A stretch of DNA of 32,679 nucleotides, from positions 1-32,679 of the IMG/VR virus record IMGVR_UViG_3300038695_000065. One strand, given 5' to 3'. Position 1 is the stretch's first letter; each line of letters starts with the position of its first letter. Positions 1-30,800 of this stretch are shown here, one piece after another. The position numbers were made by a program, and so were the translations under genes. Source of the DNA: a virus. The notes beneath the pieces are model-generated. The model was not told the DNA's origin and did no database searches. It saw only the letters and a program-made list of their open reading frames with translations.

Positions 1-2530
1 CATCAGCATCAGCATAAGTTGTATCTACTACTGTCTCACTTGCTGTCGTAACACCAGTTATATGACCAAAGTCATCAACCTCAATATTTTGTATGTACGT
101 TCTATCAGTATTATTTGTTGAGGTTAAAGATGAAGTATCTGTGTGACTAAATTCAGTTCCTACTAGGTTAATACCATCACCAGCGGTGTAAGTGGTATTT
201 GTATCAACTACTGTCTCACTTGATGTCGTAACACCAGTTATGTGACCAAATCCATCAACTTCAATATTCTGTATGTAAGTTCTATTAGAATTGTTAGTTG
301 AGGCTAAAGATGAAGTATCATCATGATTAAATTCCGTTCCTACTAAGTTAATTCCATCACCAGCAGCATAAGTTGTATCAACTACTGTCTCACTTGATGT
401 CGTAACTCCAGTTATATGACCAAACGTATCAACTTCAATATTCTGTATATAAGTCCTATCAGTATTATTTGTTGAGGTTAAAGAAGAAGTATCTTCATGA
501 CTAAATTCCGTTCCAACTAAGTTAATACCATCACCAGCGGTGTAAGTTGTATCTGTATTTACAACTGTTTCACTTCCTGTCGTAACACCCGTTATGTGAC
601 CAAACGTATCAACCTCAATATTCTGTATGTACGTTCTATCAGTATTATTTGTTGAGGTTAAAGATGAAGTATCTTCATGATTAAATTCAGTTCCTACTAA
701 GTTGATACCATCACCAGCAGTATAAGTGGTATCAACCACTGTTTCACTCCCTGTCGTAACACCAGTTATATGGCCAAAGTCATCTACCTCAATATTTTGG
801 ATATAAGTCCTATCAGTATTATTTGTTGATATTAAAGAAGAAGTATCCTCATGACTAAATTCAGTTCCAACTAGGTTAATACCATTACCAGCGGTATAAG
901 TTGTATCCGTATTAATAACGATTTCATCTGCCGTTGTAAGTCCCGTTATGTGACCAAAGTCATCAACTTCAATATTTTGTATGTAAGTCCTATTAGAGTT
1001 GTTAGTTGAGGCTAAAGAAGAAGTATCCTCATGGTTAAATTCAGTTCCAACTAGGTTTATTCCATCACCAGCGGTGTAGGTGGTGTTTGTATCAACAACG
1101 GTTTCACTCGCTGTTGTAACTCCAGTTATGTGACCAAAGTCATCAACTTCAATATTTTGTATATAAGTCCTATCAGAATTGTTAGTTGAGGTTAAAGATG
1201 AAGTATCATCGTGACTAAATTCGGTGTTATTCAAAATTATACCATTACCAGCGGTATAAGTTGTATCTGTATCCGTATTTACAACTGTCTCACTTGATGT
1301 CGTAACACCAGTTATATGACCAAAGTCATCAACCTCAATATTTTGTATGTAGGTTCTATTAGTATTATTTGTTGATATTAAAGATGAAGTATCATCGTGA
1401 CTAAATTCTGTTCCTACTAGGTTGATACCATCACCAGCAGCATAAGTTGTATCAACTACTGTCTCACTTGATGTCGTAACTCCAGTTATATGGCCAAAGC
1501 CATCAACTTCAATATTCTGTATATAAGTCCTATCAGTATTATTTGTTGAGGCTAAAGATGAAGTATCCTCATGGTTAAATTCCGTTCCAACTAAGTTGAT
1601 TCCATCACCAGCAGTATAAGTTGTATCTGTATTAGTTACTGTTTCACTCCCTGTCGTAACACCAGTTATATGACCAAAGTCATCTACCTCAATATTTTGG
1701 ATATAAGTCCTATCAGTATTATTTGTTGAGGTTAAAGATGAAGTATCTTCATGACTAAATTCCGTTCCTACTAAGTTAATACCATCACCAGCAGTATAAG
1801 TTGTATCAACTACTGTTTCACTCCCTGTCGTAACTCCCGTTATGTGACCAAAGTCATCAACTTCAATATTTTGTATGTAAGTTCTATCAGTATTATTTGT
1901 TGATATTAAAGAAGAAGTATCCTCATGGTTAAATTCAGTTCCTACTAGGTTAATACCATCACCAGCGGTGTAAGTGGTATTTGTATCTGTATTTACAACT
2001 GTCTCACTACTAGTAGTAACACCAGTTATATGACCAAAGCCATCAACCTCAATATTTTGTATGTAAGTTCTATCAGTATTATTTGTTGAGGTTAAAGATG
2101 AAGTATCCTCATGATTAAATTCAGTTCCAACTAGGTTGATTCCATTACCAGCGGTGTAGGTGGTGTTTGTATCTGTATTAATAACGATTTCATCTGCCGT
2201 TGTAAGTCCTGTTATGTGACCAAAGTCATCAACTTCAATATTTTGTATGTAAGTTCTATTAGAGTTATTTGTTGAGGTTAAAGATGAAGTATCTGCGTGA
2301 TTAAATTTAGTACCAACTAAACTAATGGCATCACCAGCGGTATAAGTTGTATCAGTATCAACAACGGTTTCACTCGCTGTTGTAACTCCCGTTATGTGAC
2401 CAAAACCGTCGACTTCAATATTTTGTATATAAGTCCTATTAGAGTTGTTAGTTGATGTTAAAGATGAAGTATCATCGTGACTAAATTCGGTGTTATTCAA
2501 AATTATACCATCACCAGCGGTATAAGTTGT
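1..2530 (-). repeat. Tandem array of near-identical 174/180/186-bp fibre repeats (module A)
   Basis: The phrase 'cagc(g/a)(g/t)...aag' marks each unit, at 181, 361, 535, 715, 889, 1069, 1249, 1435, 1609, 1789, 1963, 2149, 2335 and 2515. Spacings are 180, 174, 180, 174, 180, 180, 186, 174, 180, 174, 186, 186 and 180 bp. Every spacing is 174 plus 0, 6 or 12 bp. The 6-bp steps are extra (D/N)T dipeptides in the linker before TTYTAG. The array continues past the left edge. Confidence 0.95.
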
Positions 2531-7721: not shown

Positions 7722-8966
7722 ATGGAAAAAACAAATAGCAAAAAGATTAAGGTCCTTGTAGTACCTTCTGACCGAACTGGTGTAAGTTATTATAGGTCAA
7801 CTAAACCTCACGTACATCTAGAACAAATGTACCCAGAAGAATTTCACGTAGATATAGATTACGAACCTCAATTAAATAACGATGAGTGGTTGAAGCAATA
7901 CGATATTATTCATTATCATAGAACGTTAGGTGATTATGGACATATGGAAGATTTAGTTAAACATTTAAACTCACTAGGAATAGTTACTATAATGGATTTA
8001 GATGACTATTGGTTACCTGAGATGAGTCATCCAGCTTATCACATAATAAAAAATAATGATTTGGATGTAAAGATACGTAATAATATTAAAACAGCAGAAA
8101 ACGTAACTACAACTACATCCATTTTTGCTGACGAAATTAAAAAGGTTAATAAAAGCGTTAAAGTTTTACCTAACGCTATTGACCCTAATGAAAAACAATT
8201 CATTCCTAACCCTGAACCTTCTGATAAAATAAGGATAGGATGGTTAGGTGGTAGTAGCCACTTAAATGATTTACAACTATTGAACAAATTAGTAACTAAA
8301 TTGAAGTCTGATGGTTTATTAGATAAAATACAATTTGTTATTTGTGGGTTTGACATTAGAGGTAAAGTTAATATGATTAATAAAGAAACTGGCGAAACCA
8401 CACAAAGAGATGTTAAACCAGAGGAAACAGTATGGGTTCAATATGAAAAAATATTCACTGATAACTACAGTACAATAAGTCCTGAATACAAAGACCATTT
8501 AAATAGATTTGTCACACAGGAATTCGAAGGCGTAGAAAATGAACCATACAGAAGAGTATGGACCAAACCAATTAGTAGTTATGCAACCAACTACAATTTA
8601 TTTGATATATCTTTAGCACCTTTAGTTGATAATACTTTCAATAAAGTTAAAAGTCAATTAAAGGTCATTGAAAGCGGGTTTCATAAAAAAGCATTGATTG
8701 CTCAAAACTTTGGACCTTATACTTTGGATGTCGATAACGCATACGTTAGAGGCGGTGAGATTGACACAAGTAAAAATGGTTTTTTAGTTGATTCACATAA
8801 GAATCATAAATCTTGGTATCAGTACCTTAAAAGACTCATTCAAGAGCCAGAAATGATAAAAACTTTCGGTGACAATCTTTATAATACGGTAAAGGACAAA
8901 TATAGTTTAGATGTTGTAACAAAAGAAAGGGCTGATTACTATAAGAAATTATTAAAAGAAAAATAA
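7722..8966 (+). CDS. GT4-type glycosyltransferase
   Basis: 414 residues with a two-lobed GT-B layout. The N-terminal lobe (1 to about 165) has VLVVPSDRTGVSYYRSTKPH, then YDIIHYHR and VTIMDLDDYW. The C-terminal nucleotide-sugar-binding lobe starts at IRIGWLGGSSHLNDLQLL and contains the ISLAPL...FN.VKSQLKVIESG stretch typical of family 4 transferases. Its expected role is transfer of a sugar from an NDP-donor to an unknown acceptor in the cytoplasm. It is the first sugar gene after a terminator and heads the cassette reaching to 16586. A diverged promoter-like stretch (TATATTTTTAG at 7681) lies upstream but lacks a clear TTG box. The donor sugar cannot be told from sequence. Confidence 0.85.
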   Translation: MEKTNSKKIKVLVVPSDRTGVSYYRSTKPHVHLEQMYPEEFHVDIDYEPQLNNDEWLKQYDIIHYHRTLGDYGHMEDLVKHLNSLGIVTIMDLDDYWLPEMSHPAYHIIKNNDLDVKIRNNIKTAENVTTTTSIFADEIKKVNKSVKVLPNAIDPNEKQFIPNPEPSDKIRIGWLGGSSHLNDLQLLNKLVTKLKSDGLLDKIQFVICGFDIRGKVNMINKETGETTQRDVKPEETVWVQYEKIFTDNYSTISPEYKDHLNRFVTQEFEGVENEPYRRVWTKPISSYATNYNLFDISLAPLVDNTFNKVKSQLKVIESGFHKKALIAQNFGPYTLDVDNAYVRGGEIDTSKNGFLVDSHKNHKSWYQYLKRLIQEPEMIKTFGDNLYNTVKDKYSLDVVTKERADYYKKLLKEK

Positions 8967-8967
8967 A

Positions 8968-9348
8968 ATGGAAATATTAAAGAAAATAGGTCGCTATTTT
9001 AAAAACTTGTTTTACACCATTATAGGTAAAGAAGTAAAACCTGAAGATAAGGAAGTTGAAGAAGAAAAAATACACGGACTTTTTACTGAAAATAACGTCA
9101 AACGAATAATTTATTTAAATGAAAAATTAGATGGTATTAAAAGCGATAATCTAACTGAATCTGAAAGAGAGTTTATTGAAAATAGAATTAAAATAAACCA
9201 TGAAAAGCTCATGCAACGAAAATATGGTAAAGCGTTAAATTCACCACCTGAAGAATTAAAAGAAGCTATTGAAAAAGATAATGATTTGGACTCACTTATT
9301 ATGGATAGAAAAATACGTGGATTAAATGATATATCTGAAGAACAATAA
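8968..9348 (+). CDS. Hypothetical charged helical protein
   Basis: 126 residues, starting 1 nt after the previous stop. The N-terminus (MEILKKIGRYFKNLFYTIIG) looks like an amphipathic, membrane-surface-binding helix. The rest is rich in Glu and Lys and is predicted to be helical (about 45-85 and 95-118). No family is recognised. Tight coupling to the GT4 gene suggests it may tether or regulate that enzyme at the membrane, but the sequence alone does not prove this. Confidence 0.7.
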   Translation: MEILKKIGRYFKNLFYTIIGKEVKPEDKEVEEEKIHGLFTENNVKRIIYLNEKLDGIKSDNLTESEREFIENRIKINHEKLMQRKYGKALNSPPEELKEAIEKDNDLDSLIMDRKIRGLNDISEEQ

Positions 9349-9350
9349 CC

Positions 9351-9381
9351 TTGTCTAAAAGTGTTTAAAATAGTATATTTG
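9351..9381 (+). promoter_or_regulatory. Bacteroidetes-type promoter before the HD-like gene
   Basis: TTG at 9351-9353, a 20-nt spacer, then TATATTTG at 9374-9381. This matches the Bacteroidetes consensus TTTG...TAnnTTTG. The start codon follows 16 nt later. Confidence 0.75.
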
Positions 9382-9397
9382 ATTAAAATAAATTAAT

Positions 9398-9979
9398 ATG
9401 AGTTTAAAAAAGAGTAAAATTGTCTCTAATACTAAGAAGTATGTAGAGACAGCAAAGGAATATGGGTTCTTGACGCCTGAGTTAGAAGATTTCTTAGGTA
9501 GCGACTTTATTGAAGCACCAGCTTCAACTTTAGTTAAGTTACATAACGCATTTGAAGGAGGTTTAATTGACCATACTTTAAGAGTTATGAAGCATGGTTA
9601 TTTAATTAATAAAAATAACCTTATTGATGAATTGAAAATTGATGAGGTTTCTTTATTTAAGATAATCTTGCTTCATTCAATAGGTAAAGCTAAATTATAC
9701 ATTCCAGAAACTTCAGATTGGCATAGAGAAAACCAAGGTAAGATGTATAAATTTAACGAAGACCTTATATCAATGAGAGTTGGTGAACGTTCAGGTTATT
9801 ACGCTCTTAGTAATGGTGTCGAATTAACTGAAGAAGAATACGCTTCTATCATTAACTTTGATAAATCAGGTGATACACAATCTGAATGGTATAACACTAC
9901 CGCTGGGGATGTTTTAAAAATGGCAGTTAAATTAGCAATCATGGAAGAAAAGAAGATTGCAGAAAGAAATCAAGATTAA
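9398..9979 (+). CDS. HD-domain-like phage protein with lost metal ligands
   Basis: 193 residues. The order of motifs matches phage HD-type phosphohydrolases: LHNAFEGGLIDHTLRV (H49, H59), ILLHSIGK (91-97), and DWHRENQGKMYKFN (108-120), as in the well-known phage family with HDLGK and EWH.KNQGKMYKYN. However, the diagnostic His-Asp pair is H93-S94 here, and the later HDG-type motif is NFDKS (153-157). Two metal ligands therefore appear to be lost, so phosphohydrolase activity is doubtful. It has its own Bacteroidetes-type promoter, and the MazG-like gene follows 1 nt after its stop. That suggests a nucleotide-linked role, perhaps binding a nucleotide without hydrolysing it. The family assignment is by eye. 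Confidence 0.7.
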   Translation: MSLKKSKIVSNTKKYVETAKEYGFLTPELEDFLGSDFIEAPASTLVKLHNAFEGGLIDHTLRVMKHGYLINKNNLIDELKIDEVSLFKIILLHSIGKAKLYIPETSDWHRENQGKMYKFNEDLISMRVGERSGYYALSNGVELTEEEYASIINFDKSGDTQSEWYNTTAGDVLKMAVKLAIMEEKKIAERNQD

Positions 9980-9980
9980 T

Positions 9981-10331
9981 ATGGAGTTTAAAGAATTAAA
10001 TGAAAAGGTAATTGAATGGGCTGATAATAAGGGAATCCTTAACATCGCCACACCTAAAAGTCAACTTGGTAAAACGAAAGAAGAGGTTGAGGAATTGACT
10101 GAAGCTTTGGAAGCGCAAGATGAAGGTTTGTTTGAGTTTGTAAACTCAAAAGGTGAAACTAAGAACACCGATTTTGAAATAGAAGATAGTATTGGTGATA
10201 TTCTAGTAACATTGATAATTCAAGCTAAGATGCAAAATATTGATATTGTAAAGGCCTTAGAATTAGCATATGATACAATCTCAAAAAGAACTGGTAAAAT
10301 GGTTAATGGGGTTTTCGTTAAAAATAAATAA
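9981..10331 (+). CDS. MazG-like nucleotide pyrophosphohydrolase
   Basis: 116 residues from the ATG at 9981. A longer frame from a TTG inside the HD gene is less likely. The all-alpha MazG core is visible: LGKTKEEVEELTEAL (29-43) supplies the EExxE metal-binding helix and EIEDSIGDILVTLII (66-80) supplies ExxxD. The C-terminus has LELAYDTISKRTGKMVNGVF, the usual end of phage MazG proteins. Such enzymes hydrolyse NTPs or (p)ppGpp-like nucleotides to monophosphates. In phages they are thought to restore biosynthesis or clean nucleotide pools. All key acidic residues are present. Confidence 0.85.
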   Translation: MEFKELNEKVIEWADNKGILNIATPKSQLGKTKEEVEELTEALEAQDEGLFEFVNSKGETKNTDFEIEDSIGDILVTLIIQAKMQNIDIVKALELAYDTISKRTGKMVNGVFVKNK

Positions 10332-10342
10332 ATAATTAGTAA

Positions 10343-11989
10343 GTGATAAGTATAGTATTCTGTACCAGAGAACATAACCAAAAGCATATAGACCACTTAA
10401 AGAAAATGGCTGGTCACCCTAAAGTTGAAGTAATTGAATATATAAACAATGGAGAATCCTTAACTAAAGCTTATAATAAGTTGCTAGATAAGGCTAAGTT
10501 CGACATTGTTGTTTTTTGCCACGATGATATTGAAGTTAAAACGAAGCAAATGGCTAAAAAGATGAAGAGACATTACGATAAGACTGATTATGGTATATTG
10601 GGTGTTGCTGGTACAAAATACTTACATTCAAATGGTAAGTGGTGGACGGACCCAAAGTCCATGTACGGGCGTGTATGGCATTCACACAAAGGTAAGCAAT
10701 GGGAATCTAAATATAGTGAGGATTTAAATAAAGGGGTTGAAGATGTTGTTACAGTAGACGGTGTTTTCTTTTCTGTGATGAAATCTAGACTTGAAAAAAT
10801 ATTTAACGAAGACGTAGAAGGGTTCCATTTCTACGACATTGATTTTTGTTTTAGAAACTTTTTAGATGGTGTTAAAGTAGGAGTGCATACAGACATTTCA
10901 ATCACTCACATGTCCATAGGTGAAACAAATAATGAATGGGAAGAGAATAGAAAGAATTTTGCTGAGGAATATAAAGATAAATTACCTATCAAAATAGACA
11001 GAGAATTTAGCGACAATCATAGTTTTAATATAATGATTAGTTGCATTAACTTCAACAGTTACACGGGTTCCGAATTGTATAATTACGAACTGGCCAAAGC
11101 ACTAGTTAAAAAAGGACACAACGTTACTATATGTTCTAACATAGGTGGTAAAATAGCACAACAAGCCTTAACACACGGAATTAAATTAGTTGACATTAGC
11201 GAACCCTTAGGTTTCAAAAGAGGTGATGGTAAATGGCAAATACAAGGTAATGACGGTAAATTAACACCTTCCGAAGCAAACAAGCTATATAGAGTAGGTC
11301 AAGTTAATATTGACATAATTCATTCAAGTCACACACCAGTAACAAAATTAATGGCTAAGATATACCCTGAGATACCAATAGTGTCTTCAATTCATTCTGA
11401 AGTTATTAGTTTAGAACACCCAGTTTTATCTGATAACGTTAAGAAATATATAGCTATCAGGCCTGAAATAAAGGAGTATATCACTAAAGAGCACGATATA
11501 CCTGAGGAAAAAATAGAAATCATTTATAACCCTATCGATGAAACACGTTTTAAACCTGTAGAGGTTGATTCTAAGACCGACAAGAAGATTACTCTGTTTG
11601 TAGGGACGATTGACTATCTTAGAAAAGATATGCTCTTAGACCTCATTAAAAGAACTAAAGAAGAAAACGGTGAGTTGTGGGTAATAGGTAAAGAAAACGG
11701 TATTAATTTTGACGACATAGCTAACGGACAAGACCACGTACTATATCTTGGTATTCAAAGTAATGTAGAAAAATATATGAATATGGCCGACGAAACCGCT
11801 GGAATACTTTTAGGTAGAACCACCATTGAAGGATGGATGTGTGGTAAAGGTGGTTGGATTTACGACGTTGATAACAAAGGTAAAATAAAAGGTAAAAGCT
11901 TTCACGAAGTTCCAGAAGATATTGATAAATTTAAAAGTGGTGAAGTGGCTGATAAAATACTAGAAGAATATAAAGAAGTTTTAAAATAA
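10343..11989 (+). CDS. Two-domain glycosyltransferase (GT2-like + GT4-like)
   Basis: 548 residues from a GTG start 11 nt after the MazG stop; VISIVFCTREHN begins the first beta strand directly, which fixes this start. Residues 1 to about 225 form a GT-A fold with a DXD-like HDD (60-62) in VVFCHDDIEV, then VDGVFFSVMKS and GFHFYDIDFCFR. Residues about 228-548 form a GT-B fold: MISCINFNSYTGSELYNYEL, HSSHTPVTKL, IYNPIDETRF and TLFVGTIDYLRKDMLLDLI. The last lobe has weak GT4 signatures around GILLGRTTIEGWMCGKGGW. The protein may add two successive sugars. Its stop overlaps the next ATG by one base (TAATG), so translation is coupled. Confidence 0.85.
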   Translation: MISIVFCTREHNQKHIDHLKKMAGHPKVEVIEYINNGESLTKAYNKLLDKAKFDIVVFCHDDIEVKTKQMAKKMKRHYDKTDYGILGVAGTKYLHSNGKWWTDPKSMYGRVWHSHKGKQWESKYSEDLNKGVEDVVTVDGVFFSVMKSRLEKIFNEDVEGFHFYDIDFCFRNFLDGVKVGVHTDISITHMSIGETNNEWEENRKNFAEEYKDKLPIKIDREFSDNHSFNIMISCINFNSYTGSELYNYELAKALVKKGHNVTICSNIGGKIAQQALTHGIKLVDISEPLGFKRGDGKWQIQGNDGKLTPSEANKLYRVGQVNIDIIHSSHTPVTKLMAKIYPEIPIVSSIHSEVISLEHPVLSDNVKKYIAIRPEIKEYITKEHDIPEEKIEIIYNPIDETRFKPVEVDSKTDKKITLFVGTIDYLRKDMLLDLIKRTKEENGELWVIGKENGINFDDIANGQDHVLYLGIQSNVEKYMNMADETAGILLGRTTIEGWMCGKGGWIYDVDNKGKIKGKSFHEVPEDIDKFKSGEVADKILEEYKEVLK

Positions 11990-12702
11990 TGACAATAAGA
12001 GTTTTAATATTAAACTTAAATAACTTAAATTTTATAAGGGACTGTGTTTCAGATTTGAGAGCGCAGGCCCATTTTAATTTTAAAGTAACCATAATCGACC
12101 AAGATTCAACTGAAGAAGGTAATAGAGAATTTTTAGAGTCTATAAATGATAGTAGGTTTGAAATTATTTTTAACGAAAACAATGAACCAGTTAATAAAAT
12201 GTGGAACTGGTTTGCCAACACCTACGATGAAGATTTGTTATGTTTTTTAAACAACGATGTAAGAATACCAAAAAACTTTATTTTAGATACTATTGAGACC
12301 TTCCACAAAGAGGAAGAAGTTGGTATTGCTGTTCACGCAACAAATCACCCTCATTACAGCCATGTTAAATCTAAACTAATGTATGCTATTGTTCCCAAAT
12401 TTAAATACATGCAAGGTTGGGATTACACAATAAGAAAAGAATGTTTCACGCAAATACCAGAAGAATTAAAAATATATTGCGGTGACGACTTTTTATTTCA
12501 CCAAACATATTTAAAAGGCTTTGATTTAGCATACATAGTCAGCTCTCCGATAATACACTATGAGGGTCAATCTAAAAAGTTCATGAGAACTACTGGTGTG
12601 GAGGATATAAAAACCTATAAAGATTTAGGTTTTAAACATTATTTAAAAATAAATTATGAATTTAGTAACATAAAACCAACTTACAAAGAATTTAAAAATT
12701 AA
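11989..12702 (+). CDS. GT2-type glycosyltransferase
   Basis: 237 residues. IRVLILNLNNLNFIRDCVSD and VTIIDQDSTEEGNREFL form the donor-binding half of a GT-A fold. The metal-binding DXD-like motif is FLNNDV (86-91). CGDDFLFHQTYLKGFDLAYI and SPIIHYEGQS near the end are typical of family 2 acceptor-side motifs. It is short for the family but seems complete. The start overlaps the previous stop (TAATG). Sugar and acceptor are unknown. Confidence 0.85.
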   Translation: MTIRVLILNLNNLNFIRDCVSDLRAQAHFNFKVTIIDQDSTEEGNREFLESINDSRFEIIFNENNEPVNKMWNWFANTYDEDLLCFLNNDVRIPKNFILDTIETFHKEEEVGIAVHATNHPHYSHVKSKLMYAIVPKFKYMQGWDYTIRKECFTQIPEELKIYCGDDFLFHQTYLKGFDLAYIVSSPIIHYEGQSKKFMRTTGVEDIKTYKDLGFKHYLKINYEFSNIKPTYKEFKN

Positions 12703-12703
12703 A

Positions 12704-13294
12704 ATGGAAAAAATTGAAGAATTATATAAAGGTTATAAATCAAAACCAATAGTCTATAAATCAAAAGACATTTATGAACACTTACCTGTTATACGCAAGT
12801 ACGCTAGTGAAGTTGACCATGTAACGGAAATGGGTGTTAGATGGGGTGCTTCTACTATTGCAATAGGAGTCGCTAACCCAAAGAAAATGATATCATATGA
12901 CATTACTAAAACATATGACATGTTGAAAGCTGTAAACTTATTAGAAGCATCTGAGATAGATTTCAGTTTTATTCTAGGTGATACACTTAACATTGAGATT
13001 GAAGAAACTCAAATGTTATTTATTGACACGCTACACACCTACAATCAATTAAGTAAAGAATTGGAGTTGCACGAGGGTAAGGTAACCAACTACATCATCC
13101 TACATGACACCGAAAGCTTTGGTAGGAAAGATGAAAGTATATACTCACATGCCTCACAAACATTGAAAGAAATGAAAAAGGGTAAAGTTGGTCTAATGAC
13201 AGCGGTCGAAGATTTTTTAGAAGTAAATAAAAGTTGGGTTATTGAAAAACATTATAAAAATAATAACGGTTTAACCGTATTAGCCAGAATTTAA
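12704..13294 (+). CDS. Class I SAM-dependent methyltransferase-like protein (MT24 / cephalosporin-hydroxylase type)
   Basis: 196 residues, starting 1 nt after the GT2 stop. The SAM-binding loop is VTEMGVRWGASTIAIG (40-55), followed by MISYDIT and FILGDTLNIEI for the next strands. LFIDTLHTYNQLSKELELH and YIILHDTESFG match the class often annotated as methyltransferase 24 or cephalosporin hydroxylase-like, seen in sugar-modifying loci. Its likely role is O- or N-methylation of a sugar made by the neighbouring transferases. The substrate is inferred from context only. Confidence 0.8.
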   Translation: MEKIEELYKGYKSKPIVYKSKDIYEHLPVIRKYASEVDHVTEMGVRWGASTIAIGVANPKKMISYDITKTYDMLKAVNLLEASEIDFSFILGDTLNIEIEETQMLFIDTLHTYNQLSKELELHEGKVTNYIILHDTESFGRKDESIYSHASQTLKEMKKGKVGLMTAVEDFLEVNKSWVIEKHYKNNNGLTVLARI

Positions 13295-13305
13295 TAAAAA
13301 TTGAT

Positions 13306-13923
13306 ATGAAAACTAGGGTCAATTTTTTTGATTTAGGCATGTTTGATGGAGCTGAATCCTTAATGTTTTTAGAAGATATTAAAGGTTTAAATGTTGACCC
13401 ATACATTTATGGGTTTGAGGCGTATCAACCGTTTTACGAAAATATATGTGAGTTGTTTAGTGATAACAATAACGTTAACATAAATAATTTAGCAATTTCT
13501 AATAGTGATTCTTACGTTAAACTTTTTCTAGAAAAAAGCGGTCAGGGAAATTCAATATACGAAAGTAAAAATAATGTTGACGCTAAAAATTTTATTGAAG
13601 TTAAAAGTGTTTCATTCGCTGACTGGATGATTAAAAATGTAACAAATTATAAGAACAATTTCAATATACTAAGGTTTAATATAGAAGGTGCCGAATTACC
13701 ACTTATGGAAGACATTATCAATAAAAAGATTCATAAAGATTTTAAGATTTTTTTAGGGTCACACGTTGGTGTGGATATAAAAAAAGTGGGTGAAATAAAG
13801 GATAAATTTAATTATTATGTCAACCTATTAAAAAGTAATAACATAAATGTAGAGTTATATTGTAAAGACTTAACAACTAGTAACGTCAACTTACATAATT
13901 TAATCAAAGAAAAACTAAAATGA
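13306..13923 (+). CDS. FkbM-like SAM methyltransferase
   Basis: 205 residues. Motif I is NFFDLGMFDGAES (6-18), a variant of the D(V/I)GAN.G loop. YGFEAYQPFYE (35-45) is the FkbM-type acidic/aromatic turn. LAISNSDSYVKLFLEKSGQG and ILRFNIEGAELPLMEDII (121-138) match the conserved FkbM core, where the usual KIDVEG is FNIEGAE. FkbM enzymes methylate hydroxyls of sugars and polyketides. It overlaps the next gene by ATGA, so it is in the same translational chain. The Asn in the usual Asp position of the last motif is a small oddity. Confidence 0.8.
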   Translation: MKTRVNFFDLGMFDGAESLMFLEDIKGLNVDPYIYGFEAYQPFYENICELFSDNNNVNINNLAISNSDSYVKLFLEKSGQGNSIYESKNNVDAKNFIEVKSVSFADWMIKNVTNYKNNFNILRFNIEGAELPLMEDIINKKIHKDFKIFLGSHVGVDIKKVGEIKDKFNYYVNLLKSNNINVELYCKDLTTSNVNLHNLIKEKLK

Positions 13924-14570
13924 TTGTAATATATAGCGCTATTTACGGAAATAAAAATAAAATACTTGAGGTACCTGAAATTGATGGTGTTAGTAACATA
14001 ATGTACACAGATTATGACATTACCCCTAAGTATTATAAAGGTTGGGAAATAAGAAAATCTAAAGGTGAAGAATTCAATAGTAGTGTATTGAATGCCAAAC
14101 AATTTAAACTTTTACCACATAAATTCTTACCTGAGTATGATACAACAATTTGGGTTGATGGTAGTATTAAAACTAAAAATATAGTCGAATTCATTGAATT
14201 GTATAATAAAAATGAAATGGTTGTTTTTGACCATAATCACACTACATTTGATAAAAGAGATTGCATATATGACGAAGCTAAAGTGGTCATGTCTCAAGGT
14301 TTAGATAAGAAATCAACAATCAATAAACAAATAGGTGAGTATAAATCAGAAGGATTTCCGAAAAATAATGGTTTAATATGTGGCGGGGTTTTATTAAGAA
14401 AGAATACAGACTTAATTAATAAAATTATGGGTGAATGGTGGAGTGAAATTATAAAAGGAAGTTTTAGAGACCAATTATCATTTAATTATGTTGCTTGGAA
14501 AAATGATTTTAAACCACACTATATAAAAGATGACATTAGGTCAAACAAATATTTTAAAATTAATGAGTAA
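13920..14570 (+). CDS. DUF616 / TOD1-MUCI70-like glycosyltransferase
   Basis: 216 residues. MIVIYSAIYGNKNKI opens the fold. The DXD-type centre is DTTIWVDGSIK (74-84), where the family has a W(V/I)D.(N/S) motif. Then come FDHNHTTFDKRDCIYDEAK, GFPKNNGLICGGVLLRKN and SFRDQLSFNYVAWK. These match DUF616 proteins, known in plants as TOD1/MUCI70 and in bacteria inside polysaccharide loci. Likely a sugar transferase. It starts in the ATGA overlap with the FkbM gene and ends in an 8-bp overlap with the pyruvyl transferase gene. Confidence 0.8.
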   Translation: MIVIYSAIYGNKNKILEVPEIDGVSNIMYTDYDITPKYYKGWEIRKSKGEEFNSSVLNAKQFKLLPHKFLPEYDTTIWVDGSIKTKNIVEFIELYNKNEMVVFDHNHTTFDKRDCIYDEAKVVMSQGLDKKSTINKQIGEYKSEGFPKNNGLICGGVLLRKNTDLINKIMGEWWSEIIKGSFRDQLSFNYVAWKNDFKPHYIKDDIRSNKYFKINE

Positions 14571-15612
14571 AAGAACTGCAATTTTTAGTCTAGCACCCCA
14601 TGATAGACATAACTATGGTGATATATTATATGGTAATTTATTAAACAAACTTTATGCTGATAAAGACGTTGACTTTTACTATGTTGGGTTGGTGGACATT
14701 GATATGACAGAGTTAGGAGGTGGGGTTGTTATACCAGTCAGTAAGATGATTGAAATAAGTAAAATTTACACTGATGTTACAATATACGTTGGAGGTGGTG
14801 AGTTTTTAAACTCTGCTTATGGTGGCTTAAAGTCTTTTATAGATAACAACCTTAAAAAATCAATAGACAGAACTTTAAGGTATCCTTTTATGGTGGATAA
14901 ATCACTGTTTGATTCGGATATAAATCTTAGTGTTAAGTTTATATCATTTGGTGGTGTAATGCCAAATGCACCACAAGTAGCTAAATTATTTAATGAAGGT
15001 GATATTGTATACGCTAGAGATTCACTGACATCTTTCTTAGTTAAAGAAAAAGGTGTTAAGAATGTAAAAACATTTCCAGACTTAGGTCAATTCACTAGAG
15101 AAATACTAAATTTAGAAAGCTTAACAAATGATTTGTTTGATGACTACGTTGTTATTCAAGTGGGTAAAGCTAAATTCGAATCTAAGGAGGTGTTGAAGAA
15201 TGAAATAATAAAGTTAAGTGAAGTAGAAAACGTAATACTATTACCAGTGGCTTATTGTAACGAACATGACGACGACAAAATATTGGCTGAGTTGGAAAAA
15301 GAAATCAATCTACCCAACGTCAAATTATTTAAGGATAAAAACATAATCAATATAACTAAGGTAATTGCTAATAGTAATATGTGCATTGGTACTAACCTAC
15401 ACTTAATGATGGTAGCTAACAGTTACGGGGTTAAATATTTACCACTTAACAGTGTCAAGAAAATTGATAGGTATCAAAACACTTGGCATGAAACTAAGGT
15501 TAAATGTAATGAGAACAACCTTTTCGAGAAGTATAAAAAATCAATTAATAAAGAGTACAAGTTTTTAGAAAAATATAATGTTTCAGATTTAAAAAAAATA
15601 ATAGGTATATGA
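14563..15612 (+). CDS. Polysaccharide pyruvyl transferase family protein
   Basis: 349 residues from ATG 14563 (MSKRTAIFSLAPHDRHNYGD). A TTG-like longer start inside the previous gene at 14530 is less likely because the ATG overlaps the previous stop as ATGAGTAA. The family marks are HNYGDILYGNLL (16-27), YVGGGEFLNSAYGG, FISFGGVMP, YARDSLTSFLVKEKG...TFPDLGQF, and near the end IANSNMCIGTNLHLMMVANS. These enzymes transfer a ketal-linked pyruvate from PEP to a sugar in exopolysaccharides or cell-wall polymers, adding a negative charge. In a phage this is unusual. Its stop overlaps the next start (ATGA). Confidence 0.85.
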   Translation: MSKRTAIFSLAPHDRHNYGDILYGNLLNKLYADKDVDFYYVGLVDIDMTELGGGVVIPVSKMIEISKIYTDVTIYVGGGEFLNSAYGGLKSFIDNNLKKSIDRTLRYPFMVDKSLFDSDINLSVKFISFGGVMPNAPQVAKLFNEGDIVYARDSLTSFLVKEKGVKNVKTFPDLGQFTREILNLESLTNDLFDDYVVIQVGKAKFESKEVLKNEIIKLSEVENVILLPVAYCNEHDDDKILAELEKEINLPNVKLFKDKNIINITKVIANSNMCIGTNLHLMMVANSYGVKYLPLNSVKKIDRYQNTWHETKVKCNENNLFEKYKKSINKEYKFLEKYNVSDLKKIIGI

Positions 15613-16586
15613 TAGATAAATTTAAAAGAAAAATGGCTATGCTTTCATTAGCATTGTCTAAAGTAGAAAAATCTTCACTCAATAAAGAGTCGGGTGGGTT
15701 TGATAGCGAAAGCTTATTATCTCAAACTATGAACCAAGGTACCATGGCCGACGCCTTATTAAAGGGTGAAATAACGACTGAAGTAAAAGATTTAAGGTGG
15801 AGAACTTATAAAGTATTAAATGAGAGTGAAAATTTTAAAACTAAGGTAAGTGGTTATGACGAAGACGGTATACCAATAACTGAAACTACTACTTCCGAAA
15901 AAAGAAACCTTAAAAAGGTTAATGTTGATTCGTATGACGATTATGAAGTTGAGTTAGTTATTAATAACGAGGAAACAACAAAATCTACATATGATGAAAT
16001 ATCTAATGAAAGTCTAAAAATTTTAAAGGAAAAAGAAATTGAAGAATATGAAAAAAACAACGATAAATTTGACCTTATTGGAATGGAAGGTGACGGGTCA
16101 ACGGTAGGTGAGATATCATTTCACGATATGGTGTCTGATATGAAAACTGGTAGGTCAATAAACATTACCAGAGAATTAAAACCTAAATTTGAAATTGAAG
16201 AGTACGCTAAAAAATTAGTGATTAGGAATATAAATGATGAAAGTAAGTTATTAGAGTTTTATATTTCTAAATATCCTGACGAATACAACAGAAAAAGTAG
16301 ATTGATGTTGAGTGAGGTTAAAAAGATAAGTAAAAACCCTAGAGCTGTGAATATGTTAGATATAAACGGCGTTGATTTTATAACTGATAGAGCAATAGGC
16401 GCCGATAATGGCATGGAATATTCTTATGTTATAAATAAATTTGACAAAATAATTGAACACAATGGTCACTATGTGTTAAAGTTTTTAGCCACACCAGAAG
16501 TCAATGGTAGATTCATTTTTGATAAATACAGGCAAGAAGCTTTAGAAGAGCGTTATAGGAATAAAGAGAGTAAAAAATCTAGTTAA
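15609..16586 (+). CDS. Conserved hypothetical phage protein, probably structural
   Basis: 325 residues, very rich in Glu, Lys, Asp and Asn, no membrane segment. The N-terminus has IDKFKRKMAMLSLALSKVEK, followed by TMADALLKGEITTEVKDLRW (about 45-64), which looks like a conserved structural-protein stretch. The middle (100-170) is acidic and predicted helical. FITDRAIGADNGMEYSYVIN near 260 starts a compact C-terminal part, and YRQEALEERYRNKESKK ends it. I do not recognise the family with certainty. It closes the coupled sugar operon, which ties it to the cassette in expression but not necessarily in function. Confidence 0.75.
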   Translation: MIDKFKRKMAMLSLALSKVEKSSLNKESGGFDSESLLSQTMNQGTMADALLKGEITTEVKDLRWRTYKVLNESENFKTKVSGYDEDGIPITETTTSEKRNLKKVNVDSYDDYEVELVINNEETTKSTYDEISNESLKILKEKEIEEYEKNNDKFDLIGMEGDGSTVGEISFHDMVSDMKTGRSINITRELKPKFEIEEYAKKLVIRNINDESKLLEFYISKYPDEYNRKSRLMLSEVKKISKNPRAVNMLDINGVDFITDRAIGADNGMEYSYVINKFDKIIEHNGHYVLKFLATPEVNGRFIFDKYRQEALEERYRNKESKKSS

Positions 16587-24749: not shown

Positions 24750-25691
24750 ATGAGTAAGTTTGCTTTTGGTGGTAGTAGTATATACAATAAGGGTGCTAGA
24801 GAACGTCTAGAGACCACTGTATTTTATTATGGTAAAGTTGTATCAAATGAAGATAATCTTGGCGCTAATAGGATAAAAGCTAGGATTACTGGTATTGATG
24901 ATAGTGTTACTAGAGATAATATTCCATTCGCTTTCCCTATGGTACAGAAATTTTTACATGTCATACCTAAAGTGGGTGAAAGTGTGTTAGTTTTTATACC
25001 AGACGTTAAGAATCCTAACATTGATAGAATGTACATGGGACCAATCATATCCCAACCTCAACTACTGTTCAAAGATAGTGAATTATTCTCATCAAAATCA
25101 GCTTTAGATAGTGGTGTGAAAGAACCACAACCAGCACCATTTACAATACCTGAAAATAGGGGTGTTTATCCAGACTTAAAAGACATTGCATTACAAGGTA
25201 GGGACAACACTGACATTAGGTTAAAAGAAAAAGAGGTATTAATTAGAGCAGGGCAGTTTGAGTCTGACACACCCAAGGGTGAAATACCTAAATTCAACAA
25301 GGTAAACCCTTCTTACATACAAATAAAGCACGATGCTACCTTAAAAAGAGGTACACAGAATACAGAAACCGAAATAGGTGGTGCTATTAATGTTGTTAGT
25401 AATAAAATTAACCTACTAACACATAAGAATGGAAGTCCTAGATTTGCTTTAAATGACCAAAACAATATGATATCTGATGAAGAGTTGCAGAGAATTGTTA
25501 AAGATGCACATCCTTTGGTATATGGTGACAACTTAATCGAATTCTTAAAAGTTTTAATAAATGCATTCGTAAATCACGTACACACATACCCAGGTATGAA
25601 ACCACAAGATTTATCAGGTTCAAACGACATAGATAATTTATTAGAGTTCAACCTTGAGTCCTTCTTATCTAAAAATATAAAAATTAACTAA
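24750..25691 (+). CDS. Baseplate OB-fold protein (gp5/VgrG N-terminal-like)
   Basis: 313 residues. Residues about 25-105 look like the OB-fold of T4 gp5 and VgrG-like spikes: FYYGKVVSNEDNLGANRIKA, then RITGIDD, AFPMVQKFLHVIPKVGESVL and VFIPDVKNPNIDRMYMGPII. No lysozyme domain follows, unlike in T4 gp5. The rest is a Pro-rich linker, a beta-prone stretch (INVVSNKINLLTHKNGSPRF) and a C-terminal helix-like FLKVLINAFVNHVHTYPGM that ends many phage spike or hub proteins. It is therefore probably a baseplate hub or central-spike part. The domain call is by eye. Confidence 0.65.
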   Translation: MSKFAFGGSSIYNKGARERLETTVFYYGKVVSNEDNLGANRIKARITGIDDSVTRDNIPFAFPMVQKFLHVIPKVGESVLVFIPDVKNPNIDRMYMGPIISQPQLLFKDSELFSSKSALDSGVKEPQPAPFTIPENRGVYPDLKDIALQGRDNTDIRLKEKEVLIRAGQFESDTPKGEIPKFNKVNPSYIQIKHDATLKRGTQNTETEIGGAINVVSNKINLLTHKNGSPRFALNDQNNMISDEELQRIVKDAHPLVYGDNLIEFLKVLINAFVNHVHTYPGMKPQDLSGSNDIDNLLEFNLESFLSKNIKIN

Positions 25692-25721: not shown

Positions 25722-27143
25722 ATGGTAATCAGGACTTACTTTGATAGAAACAACACAATTATATATAATAGAACCGAAAATACAGGTAAAAACCCTGTAG
25801 CTGAAATGTTTTATGGCGGTAACGTTGAAAAGGACGAACCATTCTTTAGCAGATATTTATTCCAATTTGACGTACAACGTATAATAGACTTAAGGACCAA
25901 AGGTTTATACCCTGATATATCTAAATTAAAACATACTCTAAAAATGACTAACACCAGTACGTTTGATACCTCACTATTAGGTGGTCAAACTGCTGACGGT
26001 AAAGATAGAGCTTCATCTTTCGACTTGAATTTATTTGAAATCAATCAAGAATGGGATGAGGGTGTTGGTTATGACTTTGCTGGTCAAAAATACTTTACAT
26101 CCAGTGATAGTACGGTGACAAGTACAGAACCATCTAATTGGTTACAACCTAGAAATGGTGATACTTGGGATAATGGTAATGGTGTCTTTAGTGGATGGAC
26201 CAGTGGCACTACTCTAGCGACGCAAAGTTTTGAGGATGGTAATGAAAACCTAGAGATTGATGTTACTGATATTGTTAATGGTTATTTAACTGGTAATACA
26301 AATAATGGTTTAGGTTTAGCTTTTGATGAGTCATTAGAAAATACAATTAGAGAAGAATTACAGTACGTAGGTTTCTTTACAAGACATACACAAACTTTTT
26401 ATGAACCATACGTTGAAACTAGATATGAAAATTCAATACAAGATGACAGAGCTGACTTTTATTTAGATAAACCAAATAAACTTTATCTATATGTTAATCT
26501 AAGAGGTATACCAACAGACGTAGACTCAATGTCTGGTATGAGCGTTACAATATTAGATAATTTAGGTGAGACATTTTCAGCCTTTACTTCTTCAGACATA
26601 ACTCATGAAGACATAGGAGTGTATTCAATAGAACTAACCGTACCTACTACAGAAATAGGTTGTGTTTTATATGAAGATATTTGGGAAGGAATTACTGTAA
26701 ACGGTATAACTAGACCACCTATTGAATTAGAGTTCGAATTAAAAGACTCTAATGAATACTATAGCATTGGTAGTGACAACTCAACACCTAAGAATTACAA
26801 ATTTAATGTATCAGGTATTAAAGATTCAGAAAAAATAAAACGTGGTGATATTAGGAAAGTGAGGGTTATGGCTAAAGTACCTTATACTACTAATGACCAA
26901 GAAGTGTTATCATCTATTGAATATAGACTATATACAAGAGAGGGTCAGGCCGAATACACGGTAATTGATTACACACCAGTTAATAGGGCGTTTAATTACA
27001 ATTACTTCCTACTTGATACTCAGAGTTTATTACCTACTAGGTATCATTTAGATGTTAAAGTTACGTCAAATTCTGAAGTGAGGACAATGCAAAACATTAT
27101 TAGTTTTGATATCACAAGTCAAGTTGACCAAAGAAAGGGTTAA
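25722..27143 (+). CDS. Conserved virion structural protein (DNRLRE-like start)
   Basis: 473 residues. Residues 1-240 have the order RTYFDRNNTIIYNRTENTGK, NPVAEMFYGG, SRYLFQFDVQRIIDLRT and KLKHTLKMTNTS, then VGFFTRHTQTFYEPYVETRY. From memory this resembles a structural protein family of large T4-like marine phages and the beta-jelly DNRLRE type. Residues about 250-473 are beta-rich, Ig-like (LYLYVNLRGIPTDVDSMSGM, then VRVMAKVPYTTNDQEVLSSI). It is likely a tail or neck surface protein, but I cannot name it. The stop is at 27141-27143, and the truncated vWA frame overlaps its end in the +1 frame. Confidence 0.75.
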   Translation: MVIRTYFDRNNTIIYNRTENTGKNPVAEMFYGGNVEKDEPFFSRYLFQFDVQRIIDLRTKGLYPDISKLKHTLKMTNTSTFDTSLLGGQTADGKDRASSFDLNLFEINQEWDEGVGYDFAGQKYFTSSDSTVTSTEPSNWLQPRNGDTWDNGNGVFSGWTSGTTLATQSFEDGNENLEIDVTDIVNGYLTGNTNNGLGLAFDESLENTIREELQYVGFFTRHTQTFYEPYVETRYENSIQDDRADFYLDKPNKLYLYVNLRGIPTDVDSMSGMSVTILDNLGETFSAFTSSDITHEDIGVYSIELTVPTTEIGCVLYEDIWEGITVNGITRPPIELEFELKDSNEYYSIGSDNSTPKNYKFNVSGIKDSEKIKRGDIRKVRVMAKVPYTTNDQEVLSSIEYRLYTREGQAEYTVIDYTPVNRAFNYNYFLLDTQSLLPTRYHLDVKVTSNSEVRTMQNIISFDITSQVDQRKG

Positions 27144-27525
27144 TTTCTGCATTTTATTTGATGCCATTGGTGAATCATTTGATTTGGTAGGTAAGAAGCA
27201 AGACGGGGTTTTTGTTAACATCTTAACTGATGGTGACGAGAATGACTCTAAGAAATACAGCGTTGAGGACGTTGAGGAGTTGTTCAGTGAAGCGGAAGAT
27301 AGTAACTGGGGTGTTACCTTCATGGGTACAACAAAAGACGCTGTAGAGTCCGCTAAGTCTTGGGGAATTAAGGCTGGTAATACCATGCAATACAGTAACG
27401 ATGTAATGGGAACTAGAAGCGCTAACAATACCAGACTTAAATCTAAGCAAATGTATTTTGCAACGGCAATGAATTCAACAGATATGTCAAATGTAAATAC
27501 GGACAATTTGGTTGATGATGAGTAG
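27106..27525 (+). CDS. 5'-truncated von Willebrand factor A-like protein
   Basis: 139 codons from a TTG at 27106, in the +1 frame relative to the upstream gene and overlapping its last 38 bp. It reads FDAIGESFDL, VNILTDGDENDSKKYS (the TDG.END motif of vWA/TerY-like domains), ELFSEAEDSNWGVTFMG and ESAKSWGIKAGNTMQYSNDV. The N-terminal MIDAS part with DxSxS is absent. No ATG exists upstream in frame, and an in-frame TGA lies at 27079-27081. It may be a decaying gene fused by deletion onto the structural gene, or be expressed by reinitiation or +1 frameshifting. The C-terminal 70 residues are intact without stops. Confidence 0.55.
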   Translation: MISQVKLTKERVNFCILFDAIGESFDLVGKKQDGVFVNILTDGDENDSKKYSVEDVEELFSEAEDSNWGVTFMGTTKDAVESAKSWGIKAGNTMQYSNDVMGTRSANNTRLKSKQMYFATAMNSTDMSNVNTDNLVDDE

Positions 27526-27548: not shown

Positions 27549-27582
27549 AAAAAGGGAGGGACTTGCGTTTCTCCTTTTTTTT
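27549..27582 (+). terminator. Intrinsic terminator after the 22319-27525 unit
   Basis: AAAAAGGGAG, 12-nt loop, then CTCCTTTTTT ending in eight T, with one G-T pair. The loop contains the TTG of the next promoter. Confidence 0.75.
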
Positions 27583-27803: not shown

Positions 27804-28037
27804 ATGAGCAAAGTAACACGTAAACAAAGAGTTTTAGATGCAATGAGAAATCATTCATCAAAGTCGATTACTTCATGGTATGCGATTAATCACTTAGGTA
27901 ACACTAGGTTGGTGGCTACCATATTCGAACTGAAGAAAGACGGACATGAAATTAAAACCGTTACTGAAAAAGGAGTGAACAGATTTGGTGATAAAATTAA
28001 ATTTGCTAGATATATATTAATTAAAGAAAACAAATAA
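27804..28037 (+). CDS. Small winged-helix DNA-binding protein (HTH_39-like)
   Basis: 77 residues. RKQRVLDAMRNHSSKSITSW, then AINHLGNTRLVATIFELKK and GHEIKTVTE match the small winged-helix family common in phages (pattern Q.ILd.L..G.sIT...A....G..RLaarI.dLr..G..I). Such proteins bind DNA, usually as regulators, but targets are unknown. It is the first gene after a Bacteroidetes-type promoter, so it is likely expressed by host sigma early in infection, unlike the late genes around it. The basic start and full length fit a complete gene. Confidence 0.8.
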   Translation: MSKVTRKQRVLDAMRNHSSKSITSWYAINHLGNTRLVATIFELKKDGHEIKTVTEKGVNRFGDKIKFARYILIKENK

Positions 28038-28997: not shown

Positions 28998-30800
28998 TTA
29001 TCTTAATTCGTTCGGGTTAAATGTTGTTAATCCATCAACTCTAACAGCTCCGTAGAATCTGTTGTTTACCACTTTCTTAGCATAACGTGTCATTATACCT
29101 TTAACTGGTGCAAAGTTGAATGGGTTATACATTGTAGGTGTTAGTTGCATTGGCACGTATGGTGCGTAAATGTAACCAGTATCTAATAAAGACTTACCTT
29201 TGTGTCCCATAATCAATGACCATGAAGGTGCATAAGGGTCTCTATATACTTGATATCTACCTGATAATGAACCGATTTTCTCGATACCCATGTTATATTG
29301 GTCTTGCTCTGGAGATGCATCACTTACGTGGAAGTACTCTAAATCATCGAATACAGCAGAAATCTCTGAAGAAACTACGATAAAGTTAGCACCACCTCTA
29401 AGAGTAGACTTGTGGATTTGTGCTGAAATTTGGTTAACTTTAGTAATTAAAGTTTGATTCCAGTCTTTTTGAGTATAAGCATTGGCTGCCAATGAAGCTT
29501 TTCTCCATCCGTTCCAATCCCATCTTAGTTGCCATGCAGCAGCTTTTCTTAAGTCTCTTAAGATTTCCCTGTCAATTTCAGCAGCAACTTGCTCAGAAAG
29601 CATTGCAGTTAATTCAGCTTCAGCATCAATGTTGTGGAATGCACTAACATCTTGCGCTAATTCTGGAGACCATGTAGCTCTCAATTTTCTTTCTTCAACA
29701 GAAACAACAACTTCGTCTAATTTGAAAGATACTTCTCCCATTTCAGTTTCAAGTTCTAATGGAGCATATTCTGCCCATGATACTGCAAAGTCATTAGAAG
29801 TTAATCCAGTTACATCCGCATCCGATTCAACACCTACATAACCATCGTATGTTGACGTTCCGTTAGCTTCTACTGGGTGAGTTAAATCTAATTCTAAGTA
29901 GATAACACCAGCGTCATCACACACATCATTATATTCAACAATACCTTTACCGTATTTTTGAGTTACTAATCTGAAAGGAATTTCTTCCCCTTGACCAAAA
30001 ATTACATTACCATCTTGGTCATCTAAATCAAGAGACGTGTTGTTAGTAACTTTTAAAGATGCCATGAAAGATTCAGTGTCCATTGGGTTACCATCTGGTC
30101 CAGTTAATCTTCCTTTGTTCTCTGAACTAAATCCAGAAACTTTAACAATGACATTCCTTAAGGAACCATCAGTTCCAGTTGGAAGGTCAACTAAATTACT
30201 TGCAGCTTCAAACTTACCGCTTTCATTTAACGTTACTAGGTTAAGAGAACCTGTTTGAATTGTTATTTCACCTTTTGATGCATCAAATAATCCATCATTG
30301 TAATAAAGGTCATATAGGTTTTTCTCTTGGTATTTTGTTGGAGTATATCCATCAACACCTTTTACAACTGGTAAACCATCTGAACCCATTGAAGTGTGAG
30401 CAGAGAATTCAGGACCGTCTTTGTAAGGGTCACCGTAGCTACCACTAGCAGAGTCATATCTAGATGATGTTTGTGGTACAAAGAAGAATAATTTACCAAT
30501 TGGCATATTCATAGCTTGTACAGATACAATATCATTAGCTAATAACTTTGAGAATACTCTTCTTACGATAGGGAACACAACAGTTTCGAATGAACCTGAA
30601 CTTCCTCCAGCGTCAGTAGACTCGTTTAACAAGTGAGAAGCTTCGTTTTCATATAACTGAGCGATGTTCTCTTTAACGTGACCTTTAAGACCATCTAAGA
30701 ATCCTAAAGAATTCCATTTGTTGATAGTGTTTTCACGAATTGTTTTCATGTGGTTAAGACCTACATTACCAACTTTACCTGAGGTTAAAAAATTTGACAT
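28998..30800 (-). CDS. Major capsid protein (T4 gp23-like)
   Basis: 600 residues. The conserved gp23 block is seen at about 69-99 (GSFETVVFPIVRRVFSKLLA, then NDIVSVQAMNMPIG). A long middle insertion region (about 100-350) is followed by ERKLRATWSPELAQDVSAFH, EAELTAMLSEQVAAEIDREI and LRKAAAWQLRWDWNGWRKA. At the end TRYAKKVVNNRFYGAVRVDG closes the fold. The N-terminal 60 residues end in LLNE, a good L-x-E site for a T4-type prohead protease, close to residue 65 where T4 gp23 is cut. It lies downstream of the scaffold-like gene with a 30-bp gap, on the minus strand, as in the T4 order 22-23. Confidence 0.93.
   Translation of the reverse strand: MSNFLTSGKVGNVGLNHMKTIRENTINKWNSLGFLDGLKGHVKENIAQLYENEASHLLNESTDAGGSSGSFETVVFPIVRRVFSKLLANDIVSVQAMNMPIGKLFFFVPQTSSRYDSASGSYGDPYKDGPEFSAHTSMGSDGLPVVKGVDGYTPTKYQEKNLYDLYYNDGLFDASKGEITIQTGSLNLVTLNESGKFEAASNLVDLPTGTDGSLRNVIVKVSGFSSENKGRLTGPDGNPMDTESFMASLKVTNNTSLDLDDQDGNVIFGQGEEIPFRLVTQKYGKGIVEYNDVCDDAGVIYLELDLTHPVEANGTSTYDGYVGVESDADVTGLTSNDFAVSWAEYAPLELETEMGEVSFKLDEVVVSVEERKLRATWSPELAQDVSAFHNIDAEAELTAMLSEQVAAEIDREILRDLRKAAAWQLRWDWNGWRKASLAANAYTQKDWNQTLITKVNQISAQIHKSTLRGGANFIVVSSEISAVFDDLEYFHVSDASPEQDQYNMGIEKIGSLSGRYQVYRDPYAPSWSLIMGHKGKSLLDTGYIYAPYVPMQLTPTMYNPFNFAPVKGIMTRYAKKVVNNRFYGAVRVDGLTTFNPNELR

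What the first reader, a model, noticed from the sequence alone, without database searches (positions are those of the whole stretch)
27106..27525. Headless vWA domain overlapping a structural gene in the +1 frame
The TDG.END half of a vWA/TerY-like domain is intact for 139 codons, but the DxSxS metal site and any ATG are missing. The frame opens inside the upstream stop region at AAG GGT TAA. Either a deletion fused the two genes very recently, or the tail is made by reinitiation or by +1 frameshifting to give a C-terminally extended virion protein.
Basis: partly seen in the sequence, partly recalled or inferred. Interest (0 to 1): 0.5.

Follow-up and report, generated by a model that had tools for sequence, protein, structure and literature searches.

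The report
Phage gene beheaded by a deletion
In this wild T4-like phage a deletion removed a neighbouring gene and the front of a von Willebrand A gene, so the odd overlapping frame is most likely the leftover back part of a broken, dispensable gene and not a hidden virion protein: an ordinary finding.

Summary
In detail: 27106-27525 (+) is an open frame carrying the C-terminal ~60% of a von Willebrand A (vWA) domain without DxSxS. Relatives explain it. One contig (L008, 99.66% identical to the window from base 27153 on) has the intact 210-aa vWA gene behind the end of a zinc-ribbon gene. More distant relatives keep the order late gene, zinc-ribbon gene, intact vWA gene. The window and eight IMG/VR contigs share one junction at about 27149/27153. 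It removed at least 416 bp, probably 1.4-2.3 kb: the zinc-ribbon gene, the vWA start codon and codons 1-87. The upstream 473-aa protein keeps its native C-terminus and stop. The +1-frame overlap looks accidental: that frame is closed within 5-8 codons in three intact relatives. Two further contigs stop at exactly 27149, which suggests both alleles coexist. Between late gene and capsid gene, 18 of 29 loci show no vWA match, so the gene is optional. Best reading: a dispensable gene remnant. Expression by reinitiation or +1 frameshifting has no positive support, but could not be tested experimentally.

The parts
25722..27143 (+). Intact 473-aa late gene (called structural by position only), next to a weakly baseplate-like gene; native C-terminus and TAA stop
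   Evidence: Ends ...SQVDQRKG against ...SQVDERKG in L010 and L011 and ...NQVDERIG in L013; neighbour 24750-25691 has a sub-threshold Phage_base_V match and phrog_430 at 0.00092; no match for the 473-aa protein in the phage records
27082..27152 (+). Probably accidentally open +1 frame inside and just after the late gene; includes TTG 27106
   Evidence: 20 codons open before the stop here, against 5, 5 and 8 in L010, L011 and L013; weak resemblance to vWA residues 58-86 tested
27144..27152 (.). Deletion junction. 27144-27149 is left flank (two other contigs end at 27149); 27150-27152 (CAT) is of unresolved origin; 27153 is the first base shared with the intact L008 allele
   Evidence: L003 differs by one base at 27144
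27153..27525 (+). 3' part of a vWA gene: the equivalent of residues 88-210 of the intact 210-aa protein, plus stop
   Evidence: 99% identity over 123 residues to L008; 97% over L008 residues 85-210; phrog_7371 positions 80-184 of 204
27549..27580 (+). Terminator-like hairpin and T-run just after the remnant
   Evidence: 14 pairs, 4 of them G-C; 4 such sites in the scanned region against 0.9 (sd 1.1) in shuffles; a pattern match only

Best explanation
The feature is a 5'-truncated vWA pseudogene in a T4-like phage. Shown: relatives carry late gene, then zinc-ribbon gene, then an intact vWA gene; one allele, shared by the window and eight other contigs, lacks what lies between a few bases after the late gene's stop and vWA codon 87. 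Inferred: a single illegitimate-recombination deletion made this allele; the remnant is transcribed as the 3' untranslated part of the late-gene message up to the hairpin at 27549-27580, but is not usefully translated because it has no start site of its own and has lost most of the metal-binding site; the loss is tolerated because the zinc-ribbon and vWA genes are optional cargo between the late gene and the major capsid gene.
For: (1) L008 is 99.66% identical to the window over 5,533 bases from window 27153 on and has the intact gene at 157-789, with DASSS, the TAL Thr and TDG. (2) L010, L011, L013 and the contig of L012 (locus L051) have late gene, zinc-ribbon gene, intact vWA gene in that order; L030 too. 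L008 begins with the last 21 codons of a zinc-ribbon gene. (3) Of 10 IMG/VR contigs holding the left flank, 8 carry the junction and 2 end at 27149; none reads on into other sequence. (4) No vWA head was found in the window's record or in the eight headless contigs, the longest 52.7 kb; a viral-contig scan with the first 90 residues confirmed only L008's contig. The zinc-ribbon gene was likewise not found in these nine records, apart from weak 28-residue partial matches in 3 of them. (5) The upstream protein end is native. (6) Of 29 loci that show both the late gene and a capsid match, 18 show no vWA match. (7) A neighbouring 77-aa ORF is also broken in sister contigs: a 76-base frameshifting deletion in L003 with a 6-base repeat at its ends, and a W25 stop in L004.
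Against: No contig crosses the left side of the intact allele in a close relative, so deletion length and left break are inferred from distant relatives and two contig ends. The tail frame has no stop in the 7 complete headless IMG/VR copies. Substitutions are too few to show relaxed selection: 4 nonsynonymous and 1 synonymous derived changes in the headless copies (L014 left out), against a site ratio of about 4:1; a neighbouring ORF shows a like excess, 7 to 0 in L006. In one search the vWA match in 8 headless loci ran back to vWA residue 58, that is into the late gene's +1 frame; about 6 of 23 residues are identical there, and 34 of 1000 shuffles and 15 of 430 other +1-frame windows score as well with a free start (fixed start: 15 of 5000 and 0 of 430). 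I take this as chance in a region picked after the fact, but it is a result the other way. The samples may be related, so eight contigs are not eight events.
Confidence: 0.9

Rival explanations
1. The tail is translated after the deletion, by reinitiation at TTG 27106 or 27124 or by +1 frameshifting near AAG GGT TAA, giving a C-terminal extension or a short separate protein.
For: The frame is open from 27082 to 27525 in the window and over the same stretch in 7 of 7 full-length headless contigs. The late gene's stop lies just before the remnant, so ribosomes arrive there. TTG 27106 has 9 A in the 20 bases before it, inside the range of a hand-picked set of 27 ATG-started ORFs (6-16, mean 11.4), so its leader alone does not rule it out. 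The +1-frame part before the junction resembles vWA 58-86 a little.
Against: The +1 frame is closed within 5-8 codons in three intact relatives, so no ancestral frameshift design is seen. The product would lack two of three metal-site motifs. The reinitiation starts would be TTG, or an ATG only at 27322.
Confidence: 0.04
2. A variant of the best explanation, not exclusive of it: the deletion is selected, not merely tolerated. Losing the zinc-ribbon and vWA genes helps the phage in its present hosts while the remnant itself does nothing.
For: 8 contigs with the deletion against 1 with the intact head among close relatives. The deletion spares the late gene.
Against: Contig counts are not allele frequencies and the samples may be related. 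Any surviving deletion here would spare an essential late gene.
Confidence: 0.2
3. The junction is an assembly artefact.
For: Two contigs stop at the junction.
Against: The same junction occurs in 8 contigs with 8 different sample numbers, besides the window's own record. Ends at one shared base are what a real two-allele mixture would give (inference).
Confidence: 0.02

Closest known systems
phrog_7371 (phage protein family, function unknown)
   Same: The tail aligns at positions 80-184 of 204, the intact L008 protein at 10-184.
   Different: The window copy lacks the first 87 residues of the intact protein.
Pfam VWA / VWA_2 (PF00092, PF13519)
   Same: The intact orthologue in L011 passes both curated cut-offs (30.0 and 30.9 bits).
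   Different: The window ORF matches neither. The L008, L010 and L013 proteins reach VWA_2 only below the cut-off.
vWA-type proteins in isolated phages (e.g. Pseudomonas phage Pyxpy02, Xanthomonas phage XacN1)
   Same: 27-35% identity to the intact L008 protein in the 40 listed of 204 records.
   Different: In Pyxpy02, the one neighbourhood I looked at, the gene sits among polymerase, recombinase and exonuclease annotations.
Zinc-ribbon protein shared with Lak and other huge phages
   Same: The neighbour gene lost in the deletion has relatives in 22 phage records, 15 of them Prevotella Lak phages.
   Different: It was not found in the window; its function is unknown. 'Zinc ribbon' is my reading of its C-terminal cysteines, not a family match.

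Membership tests
vWA domain with metal-ion-dependent adhesion site (motifs recalled: DxSxS, Thr, Asp) | DxSxS motif | tested here: not met
   Absent in the window; DASSS or DASGS in the four intact orthologues aligned
vWA domain with metal-ion-dependent adhesion site (motifs recalled: DxSxS, Thr, Asp) | Second-motif Thr | tested here: not met
   TALFDA, TALLDA or TALYDA in the orthologues; CILFDA in the window
vWA domain with metal-ion-dependent adhesion site (motifs recalled: DxSxS, Thr, Asp) | Third-motif Asp (TDG) | tested here: met
   ILTDGDEN conserved
Truncated pseudogene from deletion | Intact orthologue in the same place in a relative | tested here: met
   L008 downstream synteny; gene order in L010, L011, L013
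Truncated pseudogene from deletion | Loss of start codon and of an essential part | tested here: met
Truncated pseudogene from deletion | Relaxed selection or inactivating changes in the remnant | tested here: inconclusive
   4 nonsynonymous to 1 synonymous derived changes, one at a glycine invariant in the orthologues; no stops in 7 of 7; too few changes
Programmed +1 frameshift / reinitiation gene | Overlapping frame and joint product conserved in relatives | tested here: not met
   +1 frame closed within 5-8 codons in L010, L011 and L013, where vWA is a separate gene; the frame is shared only by the near-identical headless copies
Programmed +1 frameshift / reinitiation gene | Peptides of the product | not testable with these tools
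   No proteomics held

The most novel reading that the evidence does not exclude
The deletion created a new overlapping coding unit: ribosomes reaching the late gene's stop shift or reinitiate into the vWA tail and make a new C-terminal piece that decorates the virion, kept open in all complete headless copies.
Probability: 0.03. Interest if true: 0.5.

Novelty: new member of a known kind. Interest (0 to 1): 0.12.

Why it matters
It shows how a suspicious overlapping frame in raw phage sequence resolves, once relatives are fetched, into a gene-loss allele that probably still segregates. It also marks the stretch between the late gene and the gp23 capsid gene of these T4-like phages as a place where optional genes come and go. 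The case is ordinary, but a fairly clean natural example of intact and beheaded alleles in nearly identical phages.

Tried and rejected
Split gene with the head elsewhere: not supported. The head was sought in the window's record and 16 contig records and by a scan of viral contigs; the records are fragments, so this is not absolute. Deletion by a direct repeat: not seen. The longest word shared by the left flank (27101-27152) and 70 bases of L008 around the break is a 9-mer (27130 against L008 359) that does not lie at the junction. Frameshift signal: by inspection A AAG GGT could serve a -1 shift, but the tail needs +1. vWA-like extension of the frame into the late gene: tested after one search showed it; a weak resemblance remains and I judge it chance. 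A first version of that test (part) used the wrong frame and is discarded. Leader composition: an A-rich-leader argument against TTG 27106 did not hold when counted and was dropped. Structure: AlphaFold on the intact protein with 5 rows gave mean pLDDT 42.3, so no fold search was made. Bacterial genome scan for the intact protein: 266 stretches matched a pattern, none confirmed. Literature: a search for phage vWA papers listed 5. In two I saw only the passages around the term: PMC1524935 tabulates weak vWA matches (0.22 and 0.02) for ORFs of T4-like phages Aeh1 and RB43, and PMC8651126 describes CobT vWA in archaeal viruses. A search by six sample numbers found no paper, so the origin of the samples is not known here. 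An Ace Lake search (listing only) rested on my recall of such sample numbers and was not followed up.

Full report
Observation. The 139-codon frame 27106-27525 (+) is in the sequence as described. It lies in the +1 frame of the 473-aa ORF 25722-27143, which ends AAG GGT TAA. The frame is open from 27082. Against PHROGs it matches phrog_7371 with E 1.2e-19, only from profile position 80 on; against Pfam it has no vWA match. So the back of a domain is really there and the front is missing.

Relatives. A scan of IMG/VR with the tail found 14 loci. Seven (L001-L007) carry the same headless frame in full and one (L014) carries the junction and then ends. L008 carries a complete 210-aa gene starting with ATG at 157, with DASSS, and is 99.66% identical to the window over 5,533 bases starting at window 27153. 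L009-L013 carry intact homologues at 52-60% identity over the tail. In L010, L011 and L013 the order is late gene, zinc-ribbon gene, vWA gene. The contig of L012 has the same order with about 680 more bases between late gene and zinc-ribbon gene than L011, and L010 has one extra reverse gene there. L008 starts with the last 21 codons of the zinc-ribbon gene. So the intact arrangement is ancestral and the window's is derived by deletion.

Junction. The window matches L008 continuously from 27153. L024 and L025 both end at 27149, as a contig would at the last base shared by two alleles; that is an inference. The three bases 27150-27152 are unassigned. At least 416 bases of the L008 allele are missing. 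In relatives the distance from the late gene's stop to the base matching the tail is 1446 (L011), 1505 (L013) and 2273 (L010), and about 2.1 kb in L012, so 1.4-2.3 kb is likely. A pattern scan for the left flank found 10 contigs: the 8 with the junction and the 2 that end there. The junction is the same in all 8 apart from one base at 27144 in L003. The late gene's C-terminus, QVDQRKG, corresponds to QVDERKG or QVDERIG in relatives, so it is whole.

Is the overlap meaningful? In the three intact relatives tested, the +1 frame before the late-gene stop is open for 5, 5 and 8 codons, against 20 here, and in the window's late gene 18% of +1 positions have 20 open codons before them. One result points the other way: tblastn of the intact protein ran its match back to residue 58 in 8 headless loci, into the late gene's +1 frame. 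About 6 of 23 residues are identical there; with a free start 34 of 1000 shuffles and 15 of 430 other +1-frame windows do as well, with the start fixed 15 of 5000 and 0 of 430. As the place was picked after the fact and the same bases encode the conserved late-gene end, I take it as chance. I had also thought the TTGs lacked the A-rich leaders of this phage's genes, but TTG 27106 has 9 A in 20 and a hand-picked set of 27 ATG-started ORFs has 6-16, so that argument is dropped.

Selection. Between intact orthologues the tail shows a dN/dS of 0.16-0.23 in the four pairs of six that could be computed. Within headless copies, taking L008 as outgroup, I count 4 nonsynonymous derived changes (one shared by the window and L001-L005, three shared by L006 and L007) and 1 synonymous (L001); L014 was left out as it covers only 68 bases near a contig end. 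One changes a glycine invariant in the four intact orthologues. The number is too small to prove relaxed selection, and a neighbour ORF shows a like excess.

Dispensability. A scan with the late-gene alignment gave 45 loci. Looking for zinc-ribbon, vWA and capsid proteins in them, 29 of 45 show a capsid match: 7 headless, 4 with intact vWA, 18 without a vWA match; 7 of these 18 have a zinc-ribbon match and 11 none. Of the other 16, one (L030) has intact vWA, one (L038) is headless, two (L046, L047) end at the junction, and 12 show no vWA match but mostly end early. Some loci are near-duplicates, and distant vWA genes could be missed by a single-sequence search. The 77-aa ORF downstream is itself broken by a 76-base deletion in L003 (6-base repeat TTGGTG at its ends) and a stop in L004.

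Verdict. A deletion left a remnant; the remnant is most likely untranslated or uselessly translated. The extended-virion-protein idea is not excluded by experiment, but little here favours it.

Noticed in passing
28998-30800 (-), residues about 200-330: The gp23-like capsid protein varies between otherwise ~99% identical contigs: 19 amino-acid changes against 2 silent and 21 gap bases in L002, 7 against 1 and 18 gap bases in the part covered in L006, 6 against 2 in L008; possibly a surface domain under diversifying pressure.
   Followed up: no
27804-28037 (+): A 77-aa ORF matching phrog_4973 is broken in two sister contigs: a 76-base deletion in L003 between 6-base repeats and a stop at W25 in L004.
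   Followed up: partly
2-5152 (-): A long protein made of many near-identical repeats (TYTAGDGINLVGTEFNHEDTSS...DGFGHITGVTT), running off the window: probably a fibre protein (by eye).
   Followed up: no
7722-16586 (+): A run of ORFs with glycan-type genes among them (glycosyltransferase domains at 10343-11989, polysaccharide pyruvyl transferase at 14530-15612, a sub-threshold FkbM methyltransferase match at 13306-13923).
   Followed up: no
L011:4701-5612: The cysteine-ended (zinc-ribbon-like) protein lost in the window has relatives in 22 phage records, 15 of them Prevotella Lak phages; no Pfam or PHROG match.
   Followed up: partly
L010:6435-7694 and L011:6782-7843: Epimerase-like genes sit shortly after the intact vWA gene in distant relatives (phrog_540 match for the L010 one) but not in the window or L008, further showing gene flux at this site.
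   Followed up: no
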